Positions 42,740 to 61,243 of a stretch of 64,000 nucleotides of DNA are shown here, in pieces. Made by a program: the position numbers and the translations under genes. The notes beneath the pieces are model-generated. The model ran no database searches. It worked only from the letters and a program-made list of their open reading frames with translations, and was not told where the DNA came from. Within the stretch, counting starts at the first letter, position 1, and each line of letters opens with the position of its first letter. Source of the DNA: Rubrobacter xylanophilus (GTDB lineage Bacteria; Actinomycetota; Rubrobacteria; Rubrobacterales; Rubrobacteraceae); contig NZ_AP019791.1 of the NCBI RefSeq assembly GCF_007164525.1, positions 2,529,501 through 2,593,500 of the forward strand, in the 5' to 3' direction.

Positions 42740-44293
<1,554 letters not shown>

Positions 44294-44332
44294 GGTTTGG
44301 ATTCACTGTAGGGGGCCAGCGGGGAGAGCACG

Positions 44333-44431
44333 ATGGGATCCGTGAGGGGTCTGATCGTGCTGATAGGCATCCTGGGCTCGGCCGTGCTCCTGGCGATGAT
44401 ACTCATCGGCCGCTTCTACTTCGGGGGTTGA
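44333..44431 (+). CDS. Small one-helix membrane protein
   Basis: 32 residues (MGSVRGLIVLIGILGSAVLL then AMILIGRFYFGG), beginning 39 bp after pruA with GGGGAGAGCACG upstream. One hydrophobic helix and a short basic N-terminus. Its end overlaps the convergent reductase gene by 16 bases. Coding is uncertain; the clear ribosome site and hydrophobicity support it. Confidence 0.4.
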   Translation: MGSVRGLIVLIGILGSAVLLAMILIGRFYFGG

Positions 44432-45774
44432 GACAGCCTCCTCTGCAGCACGGTGGCGGCCTGGATTACGGGGCTGAGGACCGGGCCGTAGGGCGGGGCG
44501 TAGGCGAGGTCCAGGTTGACGAGGTCGGAGCAGGAGAGCCCGCCCCACAGGGCGGTGGCGCACACGTCGGTGAGCTTGTCCGCCCCGGGGCCGAGCGCCT
44601 GCGCCCCGAGCAGCCTCCCGCTCCCCTTCTCCGCCACCAGCTTGAGCAGCACCCTCCCGGCCCCCGGGTAGTACCCGGCCCGGCTGCGGGACTCTATCCC
44701 GGCCGCGACCGCCTCGAGACCCGCCCGTTTGGCCTCCTGCTCCGAGAGGCCGGTCTTCCCCGCCGCGAGGTCGAAGACCTTGAAGATCCCGGTGCCGAGC
44801 ACGCCCGGGAACTCCTCGACGTCCTCGCCGAGAGCGGCGTTGGTGCCCGCGACCCGTCCCATCTGGTTCGCGGTGTCCCCGAGCGGCACCCAGGCGGGTT
44901 CTCCGGTGATGCGGTTGCGGGTCTGCACGCAGTCCCCGGCGGCCCACACCTCCGGGAGGCTCGTCCTCTGGTGCCGGTCCGTCCACACCGCACCGGTGGT
45001 CCCGATCCTCGCCCCAGCCCGGCGGGCGAGGGTCGTTTCGGGTTCTATCCCGACGCCCGCGACGACGAGCTCGGCCCTCACCCTCTCCCCCGAGACGAGG
45101 GCCTCCCGGACCCGGCCGGCGCCCCGGAACTCCTCCACCTCCGCGCTGGTGCGCACCTCGACCCCGTGCTCGCGCAGGTGGTCCTCTATGCGGCGTGAGA
45201 TCTCCGGGTCGTAGGCGGTCGCGACCCTCTCGGGCCGCTGCACCAGGGTCACCTCCATCCCCAGGAGCCGGAGGTTCTCCGCCACCTCCAGGCCCACGTA
45301 GCCCCCGCCGACCACGAGCGCCCGGCTCGGCCGGTGGCGGCGGAGGTGATCCAGGATGCGGTCGGCGTCGGTGAGGAAGCGGAGGTTGAAGACCCCTTCG
45401 AGGTGCGAGCCCTCCACCGCGAGCGGCTTTGCCCGGGCCCCGGTCGCCAGGATCAGGCGGTCGTAGCGGTCCTCGAAGGTGGCGCCGGTAAAGAGGTCGC
45501 GCACCACGAGCCTTTTGCGGTCCGGTTCGAGCTCTTCCACCCGGTGGCGGACCAGCACCCGGATGCCGCTGCGCGCGAACTCCTGCGGGGTGCGGGCGAC
45601 GAGCCTCCGCCGCCCCTCCACCGTCCCCGAGAGCAGGTAGGGGAGCCCGCACTCGCTGATCGAGGGCTCCGGCTCCTCCTGGTAGACGACGATCTTCAGG
45701 TGCGGGTTCACCCGCCGCGCCCGGGCCGCGGCCTTCGTCCCCGCGGCGACCCCGCCCACCACGACCAGCCTCAT
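44416..45774 (-). CDS. CoA-disulfide reductase/NADH oxidase-like flavoprotein
   Basis: 452 residues from ATG 45774 (MRLVVVGGVAAGT) behind GGGAGGCCGAGG. FAD loop VVVGGVAAGTKAAAR, redox Cys42 in SISECGLPYLL, NAD loop ALVVGGGYVGLEVAENL and AAGDCVQTRNRITG. The single redox Cys is typical of CoA-disulfide reductases and NADH oxidases. The C-terminal dimerisation domain (about 330-450) has YAPPYGPVLSPVIQAA. It probably reduces disulfides with NAD(P)H. Confidence 0.88.
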   Translation of the reverse strand: MRLVVVGGVAAGTKAAARARRVNPHLKIVVYQEEPEPSISECGLPYLLSGTVEGRRRLVARTPQEFARSGIRVLVRHRVEELEPDRKRLVVRDLFTGATFEDRYDRLILATGARAKPLAVEGSHLEGVFNLRFLTDADRILDHLRRHRPSRALVVGGGYVGLEVAENLRLLGMEVTLVQRPERVATAYDPEISRRIEDHLREHGVEVRTSAEVEEFRGAGRVREALVSGERVRAELVVAGVGIEPETTLARRAGARIGTTGAVWTDRHQRTSLPEVWAAGDCVQTRNRITGEPAWVPLGDTANQMGRVAGTNAALGEDVEEFPGVLGTGIFKVFDLAAGKTGLSEQEAKRAGLEAVAAGIESRSRAGYYPGAGRVLLKLVAEKGSGRLLGAQALGPGADKLTDVCATALWGGLSCSDLVNLDLAYAPPYGPVLSPVIQAATVLQRRLSQPPK

Positions 45775-45801
45775 CCTCGGCCTCCCTCCGGACCGGTGCG
45801 A

Positions 45802-45827
45802 AAGGGCCCCGCGAGAGCGGGGCCCTT
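45802..45827 (-). terminator. Intrinsic terminator after the superoxide dismutase gene
   Basis: A perfect 11-bp stem, AAGGGCCCCGC and GCGGGGCCCTT, with a four-base loop lies between the SOD stop and the reductase start. Read on the minus strand it is followed by only TTTC, so the U-tract is weak, but the hairpin is very stable. Confidence 0.75.
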
Positions 45828-45854
45828 CCGGAACGAGCGGCTCTGCCTCTCTGT

Positions 45855-46487
45855 CTAGGAAGAGCGGGCCGCCTGGTAGCGGCGGTTCGCCTCCTCCCAG
45901 TTCACCACGTTCCACCAGTTCTGGACGTACTCCGGCCGCCGGTACTGGTACTTCAGGTAGTAGGAGTGCTCCCAGCAGTCCAGACCGATGACCGGGATCT
46001 CACCCTGCATGTAGGGCGAGTCGCCGTTGGGGGTGGTCTTGATCGCCAGCTGGCCGCCGGAGGTCACCACCAGCCAGCACCATCCGGAGCCGAAGAGGGC
46101 TCCGGGGGCCGCCGCGGCGGCGAACTGCTCCTTGAAGGCGTCGAAGGAGCCGAAGGTGCTATTTATGGCCTCGCCCAGCTCGCCGGTCGGCTCCCCGCCG
46201 CCCCCGGCGCCGGAGGGAGCCATGATCTGCCAGAAGATGGAGTGGTTGGAGTGCTGGCCGCCGTTGTTCCTCACCGCCCGGCGGATGTCCTCCGGGATGG
46301 CGTCGAGGTTGGCGATGAGCTCGTCCACGTTGCCCGGGTCGACCTCGGGGTGCTTCTCCAGAGCCGAGTTGAGGTTGGTCACGTAGGTGTTGTGGTGGTT
46401 GTCGTGGTGAAAGCGCATGGTGGCCTCGTCGATGTAGGGCTCCAGCGCGTTGTAGTCGTAGGGCAGTGGCGGAAGTTCGTAGGCCAT
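45855..46487 (-). CDS. Superoxide dismutase, Fe/Mn family
   Basis: 210 residues from ATG 46487 behind AGGAGAGGTG. Metal ligands are His27 (HHDNHH), His82 (SNHSIFW), Asp170 and His174 (LDCWEHSYY). The overall sequence is Mn-type, but the second-shell Gln sits at residue 78 (GGQHSNH), the position used by FeSODs, and the usual MnSOD Gln in NQDSP is Gly155 (NGDSP). This predicts Fe or cambialistic metal use. It detoxifies superoxide in the cytoplasm. Confidence 0.93.
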
Positions 46488-46572
46488 CTCTCTTACACCT
46501 CTCCTTCCTCTGCGTTGCCTACATTGCTTGAAATCATATACCCGCGGGGGGCCCTTTTTCATCCCGCCCCTG

Positions 46573-46584
46573 TAGAATAAATCC
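46573..46584 (+). promoter_or_regulatory. -10 element directly before the LOV-phosphatase start (leaderless)
   Basis: TAGAAT (46573-46578) is followed by only six bases before the ATG, and there is no ribosome binding site. Transcription would begin at or next to the start codon. The -35 region (about 46550-46555) is poor. The 97-bp gap is shared with the divergent SOD gene. Confidence 0.4.
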
Positions 46585-48330
46585 ATGAGCATCACCCGTC
46601 CGGAGTGGCTGGAGGACGATCCCTGGGAGCGGCGGGGCGCGGAGGAGTCGCGCCGGCTGCTGGACCGGGCGGTGGCTGCGAGCTCGGGCGGCGTCGTCAT
46701 CACCGATCCGAACCTCCCGGACAACCCCATCATCTACGTCAACCCGGCCTTCGAGCGGATGACGGGCTACTCGAGACGGGAGGTGTTGGGGCGCAACTGC
46801 CGCTTTCTGCAGCGGGAGGATCGGGGACAGGCGGAGCTGGAGGTGCTCCGGCGGGCCATAGCCGAGAGGAGGGACTGCCGGGTGGTGCTGCGCAACTACC
46901 GGCGCGACGGAAGCATGTTCTGGAACGAGCTGTACGTCTCGCCGGTCTACGACGAGGAAGGCCGCTTGGTGAACTTCGTCGGGGTGCAGAACGACATCAC
47001 CGAGCGCAAGCGGATGGAGGAGGAGCGCAACCAGCTTCTGGCCCGCGAGCAGTTGGCCCGGGCGGAGGCGGTGAAGGCCCAGCGGCGGCTGAGCTTTCTG
47101 GCCGGGGCGGACGCTTTGCTGCTCTCCACGGTGGACTATCCGGGCCGCCTCCGCCAGACCGCGAGGATCGCCGTCCCGGAGCTTGCGGACTGGTGCGTGG
47201 TGGACGTGCTGAACGAGGACGGCTCGGTGCGCCAGATCGCGGCGGCCCACGCCGAGCCCTCCCGCGAGGGGTTGCTCGGGGAGCTGGCCCGGCTCCGGGA
47301 GCGCCACGGCCGCCCGCCGGGGCTGGTGGCGCGGGTGCTGGAGACGGCGCGTCCTTTGCTCCTCGACCCGGTCGAGGAGCGTGTTCTGGAGGAGAACGCG
47401 CTCGGCGAGGATCACCTGGAGGTGCTGCGGGAGCTCGGTGTGCGCTCCCTGATCGTCGTCCCGCTGCTCGCCCGGGGCAGGACGATCGGGGCGATGACCC
47501 TGGTCTCCTCTCGTCCCGACCGCTCCTACGGGGAGGAGGAGCTCTCGCTCGCTCGGAGTCTGGCCTACCGCTGCGCCCTCGCCATGGACAACGCCCGGCT
47601 CTACCACGAGCGGGGTCGGATAGCCAGCATCCTGCAGCAGAGCCTGCTGCCCCGCCTCCCGGAGCCCGAGGGGCTCGAGGTCGGGGTGGAGTACCTCCCG
47701 GTGGGGCGGGAGAACGAAGCCGGAGGGGATTTCTACGACCTGATCGAGACCGGCGGTGGATGGCTGGCGGTCATCGGTGACGTGCGCGGCAAGGGAGCGG
47801 CGGCCGCCGCGATCACCGCGCTGGCCCGCTACACGATCCGGGCGGTGGCGATGCGCGAGACCTCCCCTTCCCGGATCCTCTCGGATCTGAACGAGGCCAT
47901 GCTGCGCCAGCTGGACGGGCACCGGTTCTGCACGGTCGTGTGCGCGGGACTGAGCCCGAACGGTGCGGGACTCGGGCTGAGCGTGGCCCGGGCGGGGCAC
48001 CCCGCGCCGCTGCTTTTGCGGGGCGACGGCCGGGTGGAGGTGCTGGAGGCGCCCGGGAGGGCGCTGGGGGTCTTCGAGGAGCCGGAACTCGTGGAGCGGT
48101 CGGCCCGGCTGGCCCCCGGGGAGGCGGTGGTCTTCTACACCGACGGGGTGACCGAGGTCCGCAGCCCCGAGGGAATCCTCTTCGGGGAGGGGCGGTTGCG
48201 CCGGTTGCTCGCCGCCTGCTCCGGGTCGGGGGCCCGGGAGATTGCAGCGTGCATCAGGGAGGCGGCCCTGAAGCACGGCGGGGGCGAGCTGCGGGATGAT
48301 CTGGCGGTGCTCGTGATCAGGGCCCGCTGA
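46585..48330 (+). CDS. Blue-light receptor phosphatase: LOV, GAF and SpoIIE-type PP2C domains
   Basis: 581 residues. LOV/PAS domain about 25-135 with [20 protein letters not shown] and the flavin-binding motif GRNCRFLQ (photoactive Cys72), then [12 protein letters not shown] short coiled coil leads to a GAF domain (about 170-340). The SpoIIE/RsbU phosphatase domain (about 365-581) has [26 protein letters not shown] and [16 protein letters not shown] with the metal Asp residues. It should dephosphorylate an anti-sigma antagonist in response to blue light. A partner sigma/anti-sigma pair is not in the window. Confidence 0.93.
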
Positions 48331-48564
48331 CCCTGCGCCTTGCGCTCGTAGCGGTCTCGAGGCGAGGCTCGAGAGCACGCGGGTGGCCGCCGGGAGCCCG
48401 ATCCCGGCCCCGACGAGGGGGAGCGCAGGCCGACTAAGTCGTGGAGGTGGAGCGTAGAGAGCGGGTAACACACTCGCCGGTCGAAGGCGGGCTTCCGGGC
48501 TGCGCCAGCGGGATGGGAAGCCTCTCTGGCACGGGTTCCGATGTCACCGCCGCGCGGGGTGACC
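48331..48564. other. Intergenic region between the LOV-phosphatase and livF ends
   Basis: About 230 bp, convergent. A 7-bp stem TCTCGAG/CTCGAGA (48355-48374) lies 25 bases after the phosphatase stop and might end that transcript, without a T-run. No RNA gene was recognised. Confidence 0.4.
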
Positions 48565-53715: not shown

Positions 53716-55005
53716 TCACAGCCCGAACAGCCGCCGGAGGTGGGGGTTGAGCAGCGCCCCCCGCGGGTCGACCCGTCCGCGCACGTCCAGCCACCGCTCC
53801 CAGGCCGGGTAGCTCGACGCCAGATCCTCCGCCCGCCGCCGATGCAGCTTGCCCCAGTGCGGGCGGCCGCCGTGCGAGACCAGCACTTCCTCCACCGCCC
53901 GGAAGTAGGCCTCGTACGACATCCCCCGGTACTGATGCACCGCGATGTAGGCGCTGTCACGCCCGTAGGCGGGGCTGAGCCACGCGTCGTCGGCGGCCAC
54001 GAACCGGCACTCGATGGGGAAGTGCACCGCTGGGCGCGACCGTACGATGACCTCCCGGATGCCTTCGAGCACGGCGGTGAACGCGGGTCGAGGGACGGCG
54101 TACTCCATCTCGACGAACCGCACCCAACGGGGGGTGGCGAACGCCCGGTGGGCAGCGGCGACCCGCTCGCGGCGGGCGACCAGCCGGCCCAGGTTGCGGG
54201 CGACCGGACGGGTCAACGGCGGGACGAGGCGGCACAGCTCCGAGATCGCCCACAGCGCGCCGTTCTCCAGCACGACCTCGTTGAACTGCTCCCAGCCGCT
54301 GTGGGCCTCCGGTGCGTCGGTGGGATCGGCGATCTTGAGCTGGACGTGCGTGCCGTAGGGGAACCAGTAGAACTCGACGTGACGGTGGCGGTGGAGCAAC
54401 CCGTCGAGGTCGGCGAGGACCTCGTCGAGGTCGGCGTGACGCACCAGTGTGTGCAGCCGGTAGCCGGGCAGCACCGCGAGCTCCGCTTCCACCACCACCC
54501 CGAGCGCGCCGAGCCCGACCCGCGCCGCGTCGAACAGGTCGGGTTCGACTTGCGGGTCGCAGCGCACCACCTCCCCGGAGGGCAGCACGAGCCGCAGGGC
54601 GGTGAGCTGGCTGCTCAGGGTGCCCAGCCGCGCACCGGTGCCGTGGGTGCCGGTCGCGGTGGCGCCGGCCAGCGTCTGCCGGTCGATGTCGCCGAGGTTG
54701 ATGGGGGCGAGTCCGCGCTCCGCGAGCGCCCGGCCGAGGTCCCGCAGGCGCGTGCCGGCGCGCACCCGCACCCGCCCGTCGGCAGTCGCGACCACCCCGG
54801 TGAGCCCGTCGACGCGGAGCAGGGTGTCGTCGGTGGCGCACAGCGGGGTGAAGGAGTGTCCGGCGCCGACCGGCCGCAGGGTGCCACCACGGTCGGCGAC
54901 CTCGCGGACGGCGACGACGACGTCCTCCACGGTGCGGCAGTCCACGATGCGCCGCGGGGCTGCGGTCACCGTGCCCGACCAGTTGCGCCACCTCACAGGA
55001 AACAC
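53716..55005 (-). CDS. FAD-linked oxidase, D-arabinono-1,4-lactone oxidase family
   Basis: 429 residues with GTG start overlapping the upstream gene by 13 bases. The FAD-binding (PCMH) domain has LRPVGAGHSFTPLCATDDTL and the loop ATGTHGTGARLGTLSSQ; the C-terminal domain ends in HWGKLHRRRAEDL and RVDPRGALLNPHLRRLFG, signatures of aldonolactone oxidases. The His before the GTHGTG loop is not in a bicovalent context, so FAD attachment is uncertain. It is paired with the next gene, as also in other actinobacteria. Confidence 0.88.
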   Translation of the reverse strand: MFPVRWRNWSGTVTAAPRRIVDCRTVEDVVVAVREVADRGGTLRPVGAGHSFTPLCATDDTLLRVDGLTGVVATADGRVRVRAGTRLRDLGRALAERGLAPINLGDIDRQTLAGATATGTHGTGARLGTLSSQLTALRLVLPSGEVVRCDPQVEPDLFDAARVGLGALGVVVEAELAVLPGYRLHTLVRHADLDEVLADLDGLLHRHRHVEFYWFPYGTHVQLKIADPTDAPEAHSGWEQFNEVVLENGALWAISELCRLVPPLTRPVARNLGRLVARRERVAAAHRAFATPRWVRFVEMEYAVPRPAFTAVLEGIREVIVRSRPAVHFPIECRFVAADDAWLSPAYGRDSAYIAVHQYRGMSYEAYFRAVEEVLVSHGGRPHWGKLHRRRAEDLASSYPAWERWLDVRGRVDPRGALLNPHLRRLFGL

Positions 55006-56252
55006 CTCCCGTCACCCCGGTAGGTGGTGACCTCGTCCACCACCCGCCCCTCGGAGACCACCACGAGATGGGTGAACCGTTCGCACAGCTCGCCGGCCTT
55101 GGCGTGCCGCAGGAACACCGGGTCGCCGAGGCGCAGCTCGCCGCGGTAGCGGATCGGGGTCTGCACCTCCCCGGCCCCCTCGAGCGGCAGCAGCTCCGCA
55201 CCGGCCGGCAGGTAGGGCTGGGGCAGCTTGTCGGGATCGGCCGGCCCGGAGGCCACGTACCCGCCGCCGAGGCAGGTGTAGACATCCGGGCGGGGTCGTC
55301 GGGTGACCTCGATGGCGAACATCGCCGCCGGCGTGAACCGCGCCGCCCGCTGGTGGTCGAACAGCACCGGGGCGTAGAACGCCGAACCGACCGTGACCTC
55401 GGTCACCGACGGGTCACGGTTGGTGGTGGTGAGGCTGCCGGTGCCACCACCGTTGACGAACCTGAGCTCGATGCCCTCCGCCCGCAGCGCCGCCACCGCC
55501 GCGGCGCGCTGGCGGGCCACCGCCGGCACCGACAGCCGCTTGAGCGCCCGCACCGCGAGGTTGCGGACCCGGTGGTAGGGGGTCGCGTCGCTGACCCCGG
55601 CGATCTGGGCCTCGTAGCCCATGACCCCTTCGAGCTCGAGGTGGGGGCTGGCGCGGATGCGGCGAGCCAGCACGACGACCGCCTCCGGTCCGCGCAACGG
55701 CGAACGCAGTGCTCCCACTCGGAGCGGACCGATGGCGGTAGCGATGTCGAGGTCGAGGCACACCTTCAGCCGCTGCCCCTCAGCCCGTGCGGCGGCCTCG
55801 GCGGCGGCGACGTGGTCCTCGCAGTCCACCATGATCGTGAGCTGGTGCCGCTGCGACGCCCGGGCCGCCAGCCGGAGCGCCGCGGGGTCCACGGTAGGGT
55901 ACGCCACCAGGAGATCCTCGAAACCCTGGCTGGCCAGGTAGACGGCCTCAGCGACCGTCATGCACATCAGCCCCCGGAAGCCGTTGGTGGACAGGATGCG
56001 GCGCAGCACCGGGACACTGCGCACCGACTTGGACGCCACCCGCACCGGCAGCATCCCGGCGCGGCGGCGCACCTCGGCGATGTTGGCGTCCAACGCGTCG
56101 CGGTCGAGCAGCGCGAGCGGCAGCGGCCGGCCGGCGATCGCGTCGCGGTAGGCGGCGTAGTCCGGCTGCGAAGGGCGGCCGGACTTCCCAACCCCTGAGA
56201 GGTCCGGCGCATGGATGTGTTTCAATCCTTCATGAACGGGTTCAAATCTCAT
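54993..56252 (-). CDS. Alanine racemase/D-threonine aldolase-fold (amino acid deaminase/aldolase-like) PLP protein
   Basis: 420 residues from ATG 56252, or shorter. PLP Lys in LPVRVASKSVRSVPV, then GFRGLMCMTVAEAVYLASQ and RFVNGGGTGSLTTTNRD (phosphate-binding), and the end of the barrel at LGGGYVASGPADPD. The first 20 residues translate the degenerate CRISPR repeat (RFEPVHEGLK) plus a short join, so the native N-terminus was lost or re-created at the array border; TTG at 56228-56230 within the repeat is another possible start. The family acts on D-amino acids. Confidence 0.8.
   Translation of the reverse strand: MRFEPVHEGLKHIHAPDLSGVGKSGRPSQPDYAAYRDAIAGRPLPLALLDRDALDANIAEVRRRAGMLPVRVASKSVRSVPVLRRILSTNGFRGLMCMTVAEAVYLASQGFEDLLVAYPTVDPAALRLAARASQRHQLTIMVDCEDHVAAAEAAARAEGQRLKVCLDLDIATAIGPLRVGALRSPLRGPEAVVVLARRIRASPHLELEGVMGYEAQIAGVSDATPYHRVRNLAVRALKRLSVPAVARQRAAAVAALRAEGIELRFVNGGGTGSLTTTNRDPSVTEVTVGSAFYAPVLFDHQRAARFTPAAMFAIEVTRRPRPDVYTCLGGGYVASGPADPDKLPQPYLPAGAELLPLEGAGEVQTPIRYRGELRLGDPVFLRHAKAGELCERFTHLVVVSEGRVVDEVTTYRGDGRCFL
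56219..56248 (-). repeat. Degenerate terminal CRISPR repeat
   Basis: The 30-base unit matches the array consensus at both ends (GTTTCAATCC and TTCAAATC) but differs in the middle. It is followed by a 38-base spacer before the first perfect repeat, so it is the decayed distal repeat, as expected at the end away from the leader. It also lies inside the 5' end of the racemase-like gene. Confidence 0.8.
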
Positions 56253-56286
56253 TGCCAAAACCCATCTTTACTGATGGTTCATCCCG

Positions 56287-59200
56287 GTTTCAATCCCTCA
56301 TAGGTAGGCTCAAAACTCGTGCCCGTGCGGCCTCGTGGGCTGTGGCGACACACTGTTTCAATCCCTCATAGGTAGGCTCAAAACTCGTCGCTGCCGCGAA
56401 CCCTCCGGAGATCGCTGTGGGGTTTCAATCCCTCATAGGTAGGCTCAAAACGATGCGCTACAGGCTCGACACCACGATGGAGGACCGGTTTCAATCCCTC
56501 ATAGGTAGGCTCAAAACGTAATTCCGGAAGACATACAAGAGGATGGCTCGCAAGTTTCAATCCCTCATAGGTAGGCTCAAAACGCGGTAGAGCAGGACGA
56601 GGGTATCCCCCCGCCGCTCCACCGTTTCAATCCCTCATAGGTAGGCTCAAAACATATACCGTTGGAGCACTAAACACGATTGGGTCGAGGTTTCAATCCC
56701 TCATAGGTAGGCTCAAAACGCCGCAACTCCTCTGTCCAGATCCACGCCTACAACTCGTTTCAATCCCTCATAGGTAGGCTCAAAACTAAAGAGAGAGCAG
56801 AAAGGAGAGAGGATGGAGACGAGTTTCAATCCCTCATAGGTAGGCTCAAAACATGCACGGGATGTGGGGGCAGGATCTCCACTCCTGGGTTTCAATCCCT
56901 CATAGGTAGGCTCAAAACCGGGCGTTCGACCACCGCAGGGTGCAGAAGGCGTACGTTTCAATCCCTCATAGGTAGGCTCAAAACTTTGTCCGCGACGATG
57001 AGGGGAATATCGTCGGCGCCGTTTCAATCCCTCATAGGTAGGCTCAAAACGTGCGCTTCGCCGGCGTGGAGGTGCCGCCGGACGTGTTTCAATCCCTCAT
57101 AGGTAGGCTCAAAACCGCGCCGGCGAGCGCTCCTTCGCCCTGCACGACGGGACGTTTCAATCCCTCATAGGTAGGCTCAAAACGCGGGTGGAGGAGTACG
57201 GGGAGTGGGCGCTGGAGTTGTTTCAATCCCTCATAGGTAGGCTCAAAACATGTGATCGGCGATAGCATGGCAACCCTCATTAAAAGTTTCAATCCCTCAT
57301 AGGTAGGCTCAAAACGCCCTGCTATGAGCGCTCGTGCCACGGCTTCGTTGCTCAGTTTCAATCCCTCATAGGTAGGCTCAAAACCCGGATAGCGTGGCAA
57401 CAGACCATACCCGGCGTACTTCGTTTCAATCCCTCATAGGTAGGCTCAAAACGCGTCGGCGAGGTGGATGCGCACGACTAGAGGCCCATGTTTCAATCCC
57501 TCATAGGTAGGCTCAAAACCGCGCGGGCGCTCGACGTGGTGATCACGCCGGAGGAGTTTCAATCCCTCATAGGTAGGCTCAAAACTTGCTCTTCCCAGCT
57601 CTCGCCGCGAAAGACGGGGAGAGCTTCTCTCCGTTTCAATCCCTCATAGGTAGGCTCAAAACCGCCCGCCAAAGAGCGGCGAGAAGGTCATCCTCATGGA
57701 GTTTCAATCCCTCATAGGTAGGCTCAAAACACCGCGAGAAGGAGGGAAACGACATGAACGCGAGAAGTTTCAATCCCTCATAGGTAGGCTCAAAACTCGG
57801 GGTCAGGGACGAAGACGTACCCGTCTGGAAGGGTTTCAATCCCTCATAGGTAGGCTCAAAACGAAGCTCTTTATCATGCTGGTAGTGTAATGCACCGCAG
57901 TTTCAATCCCTCATAGGTAGGCTCAAAACTGTCAAGATAGAATTAGAAAAATCCAGGAAATTCTTGTTTCAATCCCTCATAGGTAGGCTCAAAACTCCGG
58001 AGGATAGACGAGCGCTATAAGCGCCGTCACCAGTTTCAATCCCTCATAGGTAGGCTCAAAACTCCCCGACGAGGGAGAGACCATCGACCTCTACCTGCAG
58101 TTTCAATCCCTCATAGGTAGGCTCAAAACCCGCTCGGATTCGTGCCGATTCCGTACGTGCGGTCGCACGTTTCAATCCCTCATAGGTAGGCTCAAAACCG
58201 TCTCTCCCGAGGGCGAGGGGATCCGCGTGCCCGCGGCGTTTCAATCCCTCATAGGTAGGCTCAAAACCGTCGGGGTCGCAGCGGCTTCCGGGAGTTATCG
58301 TCGTTTCAATCCCTCATAGGTAGGCTCAAAACGTCCCTCCCCGGCCCCGCAGCCGAAACCGGCAAAGTATGTTTCAATCCCTCATAGGTAGGCTCAAAAC
58401 GAGCTTCGATCTCGAGGGCCTCTTCCTCTTCGTAGGAAGTTTCAATCCCTCATAGGTAGGCTCAAAACCGATTGACCGCTCGTTATACGGCCAGTCTCCG
58501 GCGTGCGTTTCAATCCCTCATAGGTAGGCTCAAAACGCAACCCGCGCTGGCGTCTCCCTCAGCCCCTCGCGCGCGTTTCAATCCCTCATAGGTAGGCTCA
58601 AAACCGCGCCTGTGCGTCTCGCCTTTCTTCGCGTAGTAGTAGGTTTCAATCCCTCATAGGTAGGCTCAAAACTTCGTTAGACGGCATGTTTCTCCTTCCC
58701 TGACTCAATGTTTCAATCCCTCATAGGTAGGCTCAAAACAAACCCGCACCGCCCGTTCGACAGATGCGTCCATCCTGTTTCAATCCCTCATAGGTAGGCT
58801 CAAAACGCGACGCGACCGAGGAGGACATTCGACGGACGCTGGAGTTTCAATCCCTCATAGGTAGGCTCAAAACGCGTCGAAGAGGCCGGCGAGGAAGCCC
58901 GGCACCTCAGTTTCAATCCCTCATAGGTAGGCTCAAAACTCGTCTTGGATTTAAGACGGCGGGTCATCGGGGGAAGGGTTTCAATCCCTCATAGGTAGGC
59001 TCAAAACCCGCAGCCTCCCCCCGCAGCAGTAGCAGAAGAGCGGGGTTTCAATCCCTCATAGGTAGGCTCAAAACCCGTAGCCGTTGGAGTCGAAGGTCTT
59101 GAGCAGCCGCGGGTTTCAATCCCTCATAGGTAGGCTCAAAACGCGCTCCACCTTCCGCCACGCCCTGCGCGCGGAGATCGTTTCAATCCCTCATAGGTAG

Positions 59201-59812
59201 GCTCAAAACTGGTTCCGGGGATGGGCGAAGGGTTTGATCCTGGGCGAGTTTCAATCCCTCATAGGTAGGCTCAAAACGCGGAGCGAGCGCGAGACGTGGG
59301 AGGTCGCCCAGCTGTTTCAATCCCTCATAGGTAGGCTCAAAACATGCGCATCGAGAGACCCGGCTCATCGTTGCAGAAAAGTTTCAATCCCTCATAGGTA
59401 GGCTCAAAACCCTTTGAGCGCACCCTGGACGACTAGCGGACCGTTTACGTTTCAATCCCTCATAGGTAGGCTCAAAACAGGTTCGCTATCTTCGCGTTTG
59501 TTATGGCCGCATCGGGTTTCAATCCCTCATAGGTAGGCTCAAAACTCGTGAGCTCTATACCGTCAGCGGTCATCTTGGCCCGTTTCAATCCCTCATAGGT
59601 AGGCTCAAAACGTGAAGGAGGAGCAGAGGCGGCATGCGCGGCTGCTGTTTCAATCCCTCATAGGTAGGCTCAAAACGGGTTCGTAGCAACTTGGTTGCCA
59701 ATATGCTATCCTCCGTTTCAATCCCTCATAGGTAGGCTCAAAACGCGAAGCGGAAGCTCTCCCCCAACGCCAAGGCGGTGCTGTTTCAATCCCTCATAGG
59801 TAGGCTCAAAAC
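56287..59812 (-). CRISPR. CRISPR array, 53 perfect repeats, 52 spacers
   Basis: I counted 53 repeats of 30 bp, at starts 56287, 56355, 56422 and so on to 59783. On the plus strand each begins GTTTCAATCC and ends GGCTCAAAAC. I saw no variant among them. Spacers are mostly 35-40 bases; one (57586-57632) has 47. On the minus strand the repeat ends ATTGAAAC, the usual 8-base crRNA 5' handle of type I-B/III arrays, so transcription runs from the leader at 59813 toward lower coordinates. The degenerate repeat at 56219 is the 54th. It serves the neighbouring III-B module. Confidence 0.97.
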
Positions 59813-59971
59813 CCCACGCCCAAATGCCGGTTTTGCAGCTATTTTGCTGATTCCTCCTTTCTCCCGTGACTTTCTTGCTCTTAAACTTGATTATAGAGCA
59901 AAGCGCTTGGGTAAGCCAGATCTTCGTGCGTCGATCTCCGGAGTGTGATGCGCTATCGGAGGTCGACGCGA
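59813..59971 (-). promoter_or_regulatory. CRISPR leader with promoter
   Basis: 159-base AT-richer stretch between the newest repeat and the cas2 stop. On the minus strand, -35 TGGCTT (59913-59918) and -10 TATAAT (59890-59895) are 17 bp apart, so the array transcript would start near 59883, about 70 bases before the first repeat. Confidence 0.75.
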
Positions 59972-60241
59972 CTACAGGAAGCTGGTCTCCTGCTCTGGGC
60001 GGGAGGGGAGTCCGAGCTCTTCGGTGGAGAGGTATCTCGTGCTGCGGAGCAGGTAGAAGCGCACGGCGTCTTCCTCGGGGTCTATGGCCTTGCTCACCTC
60101 GTGCTTGAGCTTCTTGTACTGTGCGGGGCTGAGTTCACCTTCGAGGACGGAGTTCTGGACGTGCTCGAGGTACTTGCGGCCTATCTTGAGCACTTTGACC
60201 ACGCGCTTTACGTTGACGTCGTATACCATGATCACGTACAC
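59972..60241 (-). CDS. cas2: CRISPR-associated endonuclease Cas2
   Basis: 89 residues, GTG start behind TAGGAG. The opening YVIMVYDVNVKRVVKVLKIG has the metal Asp of the ferredoxin fold (VYDV), followed by YLEHVQNSVLEGELSPAQY. Cas2 dimers bridge two Cas1 dimers during spacer insertion. It is 6 bp after cas1. Confidence 0.95.
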   Translation of the reverse strand: MYVIMVYDVNVKRVVKVLKIGRKYLEHVQNSVLEGELSPAQYKKLKHEVSKAIDPEEDAVRFYLLRSTRYLSTEELGLPSRPEQETSFL

Positions 60242-60247
60242 GCGCTC

Positions 60248-61243
60248 CTACCACCGGCTTACGAACGGCTCGTAAGGCTCGTCACCCATCAGGTGTTTCT
60301 CGAGTTTGTAGAGCTCCATCCGTATGAGGCGCCGATAGGAGACCGGGCGACCGAGTTTCGGGTGTTTGATGGTTTCTTTCAGGCGCGCCTCGTACGCTTC
60401 GATGAACGTTTTGCGTCCGTTTTCGTTCAGGAAGACCCCTTCCGTTCCCTTCAGGAAGTGCTTTGCCTGTATCGTACCCCGGTTGAGCAGGGAGAAGATC
60501 ACCCGGTCCACGATGACGGGTTTGAAGATCTCGGCCACGTCGAGGTTGAGCGTGTAGCGGCGCTGGTTGGTGGTGTGCAGGTACCCGATGCGCGGGTCGA
60601 GGTGTGTGCGGTATATCTCGGAGAGCGCGGTGACGTAGAGCAGGCTGTTGCCGAAGGAGACGAGCGCGTTGATCCTGTTCGCCGGAGGGCGGCGGGTGCG
60701 CTTCTCGAAGCGGAAGTCTCCGCTCTTTACGATCTCGTCCCAGCAACCGTAGTACAGATCTCGGCAACCGCCCTCGAGCGCCATCAGTTCCTCCGTCGTG
60801 AGAGCCAGCGGGAGAGCCTCCTTCTTCGCCGCCAGCCCGGAGAGGGCGTCTTCCAGCTGTACGCCGCGCCGCGCGTAGTAGCCGAGCACCCGCTCCATGT
60901 TCGATATCGCCCCGCGCACGAAGGTTCGGGCCAGCTCGATGCGCTTCTCCGGATCGAGGTAGTGGGAGGCCTGCTGGAGCGTCATGTATCCCGAGGAATA
61001 CTGCTCGCGCGGCATGTACGAGCCTGACCAGTAGCCGTAGTAGTTGTAGACGTGCAGCGGGATGGCGTTCTGCGAGAGGAAGACCAGGAGCTTGGTGTTC
61101 ACCGAGATCTCGCCGAAGACGTGGATCTCACCCGTCGTCTCCACCGGCACGAATCGCCTGCCTCCGTCCGCCAGCGTGAAGCGCAGCGTGTTCTGCTGAC
61201 GTTGCAGTTCTCCGGCGTTGAAGATGTAGACCGGCTTTTTCAT
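60248..61243 (-). CDS. cas1: CRISPR-associated endonuclease Cas1
   Basis: 331 residues, start behind GAGGAGCCCGG. Catalytic residues Glu157 (LMALEGGCRDLYYG), His223 (GYLHTTNQRR) and Asp235 (TLNLDVAEIF) are all present, so spacer acquisition should work. Sequence is I-B/III-like. No cas4 or cas6 is in the window; they would have to lie elsewhere. Confidence 0.95.
   Translation of the reverse strand: MKKPVYIFNAGELQRQQNTLRFTLADGGRRFVPVETTGEIHVFGEISVNTKLLVFLSQNAIPLHVYNYYGYWSGSYMPREQYSSGYMTLQQASHYLDPEKRIELARTFVRGAISNMERVLGYYARRGVQLEDALSGLAAKKEALPLALTTEELMALEGGCRDLYYGCWDEIVKSGDFRFEKRTRRPPANRINALVSFGNSLLYVTALSEIYRTHLDPRIGYLHTTNQRRYTLNLDVAEIFKPVIVDRVIFSLLNRGTIQAKHFLKGTEGVFLNENGRKTFIEAYEARLKETIKHPKLGRPVSYRRLIRMELYKLEKHLMGDEPYEPFVSRW

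What the first reader, a model, noticed from the sequence alone, without database searches (positions are those of the whole stretch)
56200..56290. Coding gene whose start grew out of a CRISPR repeat
The minus-strand racemase-like frame begins inside the degenerate terminal repeat; the translation there (RFEPVHEGLK) is a decayed copy of FEPTYEGLK, which the perfect repeats would encode. There is no other in-frame canonical start before the conserved body begins about residue 30. Either the array border has removed the original 5' end and a new start arose in the repeat, or the repeat end was taken into the gene.
Basis: partly seen in the sequence, partly recalled or inferred. Interest (0 to 1): 0.6.

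Follow-up and report, generated by a model that had tools for sequence, protein, structure and literature searches.

The report
Gene start captured from CRISPR tail
In one hot-spring bacterium, a chromosome rearrangement appears to have placed the worn-out tail of a CRISPR array against the front of an intact enzyme gene that lacks its usual start codon, so the only ordinary start codons left lie in CRISPR-derived DNA; whether the gene is still translated is unknown.

Summary
In Rubrobacter xylanophilus AA3-22, the leader-distal repeat of a 53-repeat CRISPR array (56219-56248, 22/30 identical to consensus) runs in frame into a PLP fold-III aldolase/racemase-like gene. The only canonical in-frame starts before the conserved body are TTG 56258-56256 and ATG 56252-56250 (last spacer) and TTG 56225-56223 (repeat). 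Homologues start near residue 29, and 80 of 81 have a canonical start in residues 13-46; this gene has none there. Its body is intact (67 of 68 conserved positions), and codon-usage and fold signals begin only around residues 28-33. Comparison with DSM 9941 shows that the array-gene junction is derived: a ~550-kb inversion has one breakpoint at the array's trailer end, and the gene belongs to a block that DSM 9941 lacks. So the array was joined to the gene's 5' end and the ancestral start is gone. Initiation in CRISPR-derived DNA is the leading reading, but no candidate there has a good Shine-Dalgarno, so a silent 5'-truncated gene remains a strong rival. Repeat frames running open into neighbouring genes are ordinary: it also happens beside rlmA in a relative, where the gene keeps its own start.

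The parts
56219..56248 (-). degenerate leader-distal (trailer-end) CRISPR repeat GATTTGAACCCGTTCATGAAGGATTGAAAC; translates FEPVHEGLK in the gene's frame
   Evidence: 22/30 to consensus, in register; unique in window 1-56200 at <=10 mismatches
56249..56286 (-). last spacer, 38 nt; holds TTG 56258-56256 and ATG 56252-56250; in-frame stop TAA at 56270-56268
   Evidence: no other copy in the genome, 20-nt core absent from IMG/VR
56250..56252 (-). ATG, best canonical start candidate (no Shine-Dalgarno)
56223..56225 (-). TTG start candidate inside the degenerate repeat; GAAGGA abuts it, too close to act as Shine-Dalgarno
56214..56216 (-). ATC near-cognate codon with AAGGA 9 nt upstream (the repeat's GAAGGA)
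56210..56212 (-). out-of-frame ATG (would need a 1-nt lesion downstream to reach the gene's frame)
56163..56218 (-). linker between repeat and conserved body; in frame but not coding-like in codon usage
54993..56162 (-). conserved body (residues 33-421) of PLP fold-III aldolase/racemase-like protein, PF01168
53716..55005 (-). downstream partner: FAD-linked oxidoreductase / D-arabinono-1,4-lactone oxidase family, start overlaps the end of the racemase-like gene
56287..59812 (-). CRISPR array, 53 perfect 30-nt repeats (pre-crRNA sense on minus strand, GTTTTGAGCCTACCTATGAGGGATTGAAAC)
59813..59971 (-). leader between cas2 and first repeat
59972..60241 (-). cas2
   Evidence: PF09827
60248..61243 (-). 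cas1
   Evidence: PF01867
48339..56217 (.). block with no close counterpart in R. xylanophilus DSM 9941 (branched-chain amino-acid-type ABC transporter genes, lactone oxidase, racemase-like gene), lying between an inversion end and the array

Best explanation
A rearrangement in the AA3-22 lineage joined the trailer end of an existing CRISPR array to the 5' end of a racemase/aldolase-like gene, removing or leaving behind the gene's own start. Because one frame of the repeat is open, the gene's frame now runs into the terminal repeat and last spacer. The gene, whose body is intact, is most likely translated (if at all) from a start in this CRISPR-derived DNA (ATG 56252 first, TTG 56258 or TTG 56225 second), adding about 27 unstructured residues. 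Shown: the repeat, the lack of other canonical starts, the intact body, the derived junction. Inferred: that the rearrangement itself removed the start, and that translation begins in the array.
For: 80 of 81 homologues have ATG/GTG/TTG within residues 13-46, best starts clustering at 27-31; the window has none. Body keeps 67/68 columns conserved at >=95%. Codon signal is coding-like from 56162 (rank 0.71 among in-frame windows) but not at 56216-56163 (rank 0.006). AlphaFold pLDDT <50 for residues 2-27, confident from about residue 30. Inversion: interior segments reversed, exterior segments co-oriented, one breakpoint at the array trailer. Relatives G014, G002 and DSM 9941 have other genes at the trailer (rlmA and M42 peptidase; qor, purK, purE and M42 peptidase). 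Hybrid-polished genome makes a sequence error unlikely (PMC6706694).
Against: No candidate in the array DNA has a usable Shine-Dalgarno, although several genes in this window also have weak ones. No promoter was found near the junction. No transcript or peptide data. The order of block gain and inversion is unknown, so the breakpoint may not have cut the gene itself.
Confidence: 0.5

Rival explanations
1. The gene is a 5'-truncated or promoterless remnant: the rearrangement took away start, ribosome site and promoter, and the intact body merely reflects recency. The frame into the repeat is chance.
For: No Shine-Dalgarno and no promoter near the junction. Open frames from this repeat into neighbours arise by chance: rlmA in G014 and an antisense frame in DSM 9941.
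Against: Body has 67/68 conserved positions and no stop or frameshift; the downstream oxidase gene also has an intact frame. Both lie downstream of the array on its transcribed strand, so read-through transcription is possible.
Confidence: 0.3
2. Translation starts at a near-cognate ATC (56216-56214), using GAAGGA of the terminal repeat as Shine-Dalgarno: the repeat would donate the ribosome-binding site, not the start codon.
For: AAGGA lies 9 nt upstream of ATC, the best Shine-Dalgarno match of any candidate; this start is closer to the homologue starts.
Against: ATC is a very rare, weak start (general knowledge); residues 15-32 are not coding-like.
Confidence: 0.1
3. The original start is ATG 56212-56210, now out of frame through a one-base change between it and the body (mutation or sequence error).
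For: ATG with AAGGA 13 nt upstream; runs of G nearby.
Against: Illumina-polished assembly; codon usage in that frame is no better; the start would lie about 13 residues earlier than the typical homologue's.
Confidence: 0.1

Closest known systems
Degenerate leader-distal CRISPR repeats (described in CRISPRDetect, PMC4869251)
   Same: Mutated last repeat at the end away from the leader, consensus ATTGAAAC 3' end kept
   Different: Here the decayed repeat also lies in the reading frame of an intact metabolic gene
Spurious proteins from translated CRISPR arrays (PMC7673337)
   Same: Repeat frame read as protein (FEPxxEGLK)
   Different: Those are false ORFs made of repeats; here a real conserved protein continues from the repeat and has no other canonical start
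CRISPR arrays linked to large chromosomal inversions in Thermotogales (DeBoy et al. 2006, cited in PMC5637354; the 2006 paper itself was not read)
   Same: Large-scale chromosomal recombination associated with CRISPR arrays
   Different: Here the breakpoint side carries a gene that lacks its usual start; no CRISPR sequence was found at the second junction
Repeat elements inside reading frames, such as Rickettsia palindromic elements (from memory, not tested)
   Same: Repeat DNA taken into coding sequence
   Different: Those sit inside genes in many copies; this is one terminal copy at one gene's 5' end
D-threonine aldolase / 3-hydroxyaspartate aldolase fold-III PLP enzymes
   Same: PF01168 domain; conserved lysine K77 in the ASKS motif
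   Different: Far below the NCBIfam equivalog cut-off for BhcC; a separate subfamily often paired with a lactone oxidase

Membership tests
Leader-distal degenerate CRISPR repeat | recognisable similarity to the array consensus, in register with the array | tested here: met
   22/30, 38-nt spacer
Leader-distal degenerate CRISPR repeat | at the end away from leader and cas1-cas2 | tested here: met
   leader and cas2/cas1 at 59813-61243; repeats end in ATTGAAAC on the minus strand
Spurious CRISPR-translated ORF | protein consists mainly of translated repeats/spacers, no Pfam domain | tested here: not met
   PF01168 hit 1.8e-17, residues 33-421 conserved
Gene whose start derives from a CRISPR array | all canonical start codons before the body lie in array DNA | tested here: met
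Gene whose start derives from a CRISPR array | junction is secondary, homologues start elsewhere | tested here: met
Gene whose start derives from a CRISPR array | translation actually begins there | not testable with these tools
   needs ribosome profiling or N-terminal peptides
3-hydroxy-D-aspartate aldolase BhcC (NF045642) | score above equivalog cut-off 690 | tested here: not met
   82.5 bits
Ala_racemase_N domain (PF01168) | score above gathering cut-off | tested here: met
   64.3 vs 24.1 bits
TIGR01679 FAD-linked oxidoreductase (downstream gene) | score above cut-off | tested here: met
   425.1 vs 292.25 bits

The most novel reading that the evidence does not exclude
The gene is expressed by read-through of the pre-crRNA transcript and translated from a start inside the array's last spacer/repeat, so an enzyme operon is now driven by the CRISPR leader and its mRNA perhaps cut or spared by the CRISPR RNA-processing machinery. 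Loss of the repeat's weak hairpin (-5.5 to -1.5 kcal/mol) would spare it.
Probability: 0.15. Interest if true: 0.6.

Novelty: new variant of a known kind. Interest (0 to 1): 0.33.

Why it matters
If translation from here is shown, it would be a clear natural case of a conserved enzyme gene that took its start codon, and perhaps its promoter, from a CRISPR array after a chromosome rearrangement. It also shows how array ends can act as rearrangement borders that change neighbouring genes. If not translated, it is an ordinary 5'-truncated gene and a caution for start-site annotation next to arrays.

Tried and rejected
Sequencing error as main cause: unlikely (hybrid assembly polished with Illumina reads). 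Frameshifted ATG 56212: no frame of the linker looks coding (the ALO+racemase codon set of that call used a misframed segment and was redone). Sigma-70 promoter or intrinsic terminator in 55900-56700: none found. Origin of the last spacer: no second copy in the genome and no hit to its core in IMG/VR. CRISPR remnant at the other inversion junction: none within 11 mismatches. Shared spacers with relatives' arrays: none. Papers describing a gene start inside a CRISPR array: none found in three searches.

Full report
WHAT IS THERE. The window is from Rubrobacter xylanophilus AA3-22: the held genome is one contig of 3,022,875 bases, the length published for AP019791 (PMC6706694). On the minus strand a 53-repeat CRISPR array (56287-59812, spacers 35-47 nt) runs from a leader beside cas2 and cas1 (59813-61243) towards lower coordinates. 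The repeats end in ATTGAAAC on this strand, a known sign of transcription direction (PMC4869251). At the far end, after a 38-nt spacer, lies a decayed repeat at 56219-56248 (22/30). It is in register, and nothing else in window 1-56200 is within 10 mismatches. The same strand then enters an open frame of 421 codons (54993-56258).

READING FRAME. The frame is closed by TAA at 56270-56268 in the last spacer. Canonical starts before the body are TTG 56258-56256, ATG 56252-56250 and TTG 56225-56223; the next is TTG 56093 inside the fold. None of the three has a Shine-Dalgarno. The best match, AAGGA, lies 9 nt before ATC 56216 and 13 nt before an out-of-frame ATG 56212.

THE GENE. It is a PLP fold-III protein (PF01168), closest among solved structures to D-3-hydroxyaspartate and D-threonine aldolases. 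It overlaps a downstream FAD-linked lactone oxidase gene (TIGR01679). In 34 of 82 homologue loci the oxidase also lies directly downstream. Best relatives are 58% identical (Thermogemmatispora); DSM 9941 lacks it. The body is intact: 67 of 68 columns conserved in at least 95% of 76 homologues are kept, about the same as homologues themselves (mean 0.74 mismatches).

WHERE HOMOLOGUES START. Of 81 homologues, 80 have a canonical start in residues 13-46 (query numbering), and the best-scored starts cluster at residues 27-31 (median 29). The window has none there. Codon usage turns coding-like at 56162 (residue 33), while 56216-56163 ranks at 0.006 among true coding windows of equal length; first codons of other genes vary widely, so this is supportive only. 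AlphaFold (33-sequence alignment, pTM 0.88) gives pLDDT below 50 for residues 2-27 and a confident fold from about residue 30. The inference is that the ancestral protein started near residue 28-33 and that the stretch upstream is added.

HOW THE JUNCTION AROSE. Relative to DSM 9941 (G001, identified by its length 3,225,748 bp), AA3-22 carries an inversion. Outer segments are co-oriented: AA3-22 2016001-2026148 = G001 2912969-2923120, and L121:12500-20000 = G001 280122-287618. Inner segments are reversed: 2032672-2036981 = G001 258 kb to 262.2 kb; 2509502-2521500 = G001 2985839-2973811; window 44000-48338 = G001 2928739-2924396. The inverted part is about 545 kb in AA3-22. In G001 the breakpoint near 262.2 kb is the trailer end of its array (last repeat at 262283). 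Two genomes of another genus (G002, G014) have the array trailer beside rlmA, followed in G014 by an M42 peptidase. DSM 9941 has an M42 peptidase gene within about 4 kb of its trailer. The AA3-22 arrangement is therefore derived. Between the inversion end and the array lies a ~7.9-kb block (ABC transporter, oxidase, racemase-like gene) that DSM 9941 lacks. Whether block gain or inversion came first is unknown. No CRISPR remnant is seen at the other junction.

ORDINARY PART. A repeat frame can run into a neighbour by chance: the G014 frame through its last repeats continues into rlmA, but rlmA keeps its own ATG. Repeat translation as an annotation error is known (PMC7673337), and decayed trailer repeats are well described (PMC4869251). 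CRISPR-linked chromosomal recombination is known in Thermotogales (DeBoy et al. 2006, via PMC5637354). What is unusual is that here no other canonical start exists.

VERDICT. Translation from the array is the leading hypothesis (about 0.5), with a silent 5'-truncated gene (0.3), a near-cognate ATC start fed by the repeat's AAGGA (0.1) and a frameshifted ATG 56212 (0.1) as rivals.

Noticed in passing
56287-77194 in window coordinates (window plus L121): The CRISPR-cas island is far closer to another genus than to the sister species: cas1 99.8% and cas2 100% identical to G002, versus 84-86% to DSM 9941; this suggests recent exchange of the whole island.
   Followed up: partly
L119:5495-8784 (DSM 9941, G001:2297.5-2300.8 kb): A transposase-bearing stretch appears to split the second DSM 9941 array, leaving one isolated repeat and a degenerate terminal repeat ending ATTAGTCC on the far side.
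   Followed up: no
L135:10149-16663 (AA3-22 2026149-2032663): The other inversion junction also carries a ~6.5-kb stretch mostly without a counterpart in DSM 9941 (includes a large ATPase/LuxR-type regulator and a repeat-rich calcium-binding-like protein).
   Followed up: partly
inversion ends at G001 0.262 Mb and 2.924 Mb: The inversion is nearly symmetric about the coordinate origin of the DSM 9941 chromosome (262 and 301 kb), the usual pattern for inversions around the replication origin.
   Followed up: no
56249-56286: The last spacer can fold into a short hairpin (-7.7 kcal/mol) followed by GUUUU, faintly terminator-like, just before ATG 56252.
   Followed up: no
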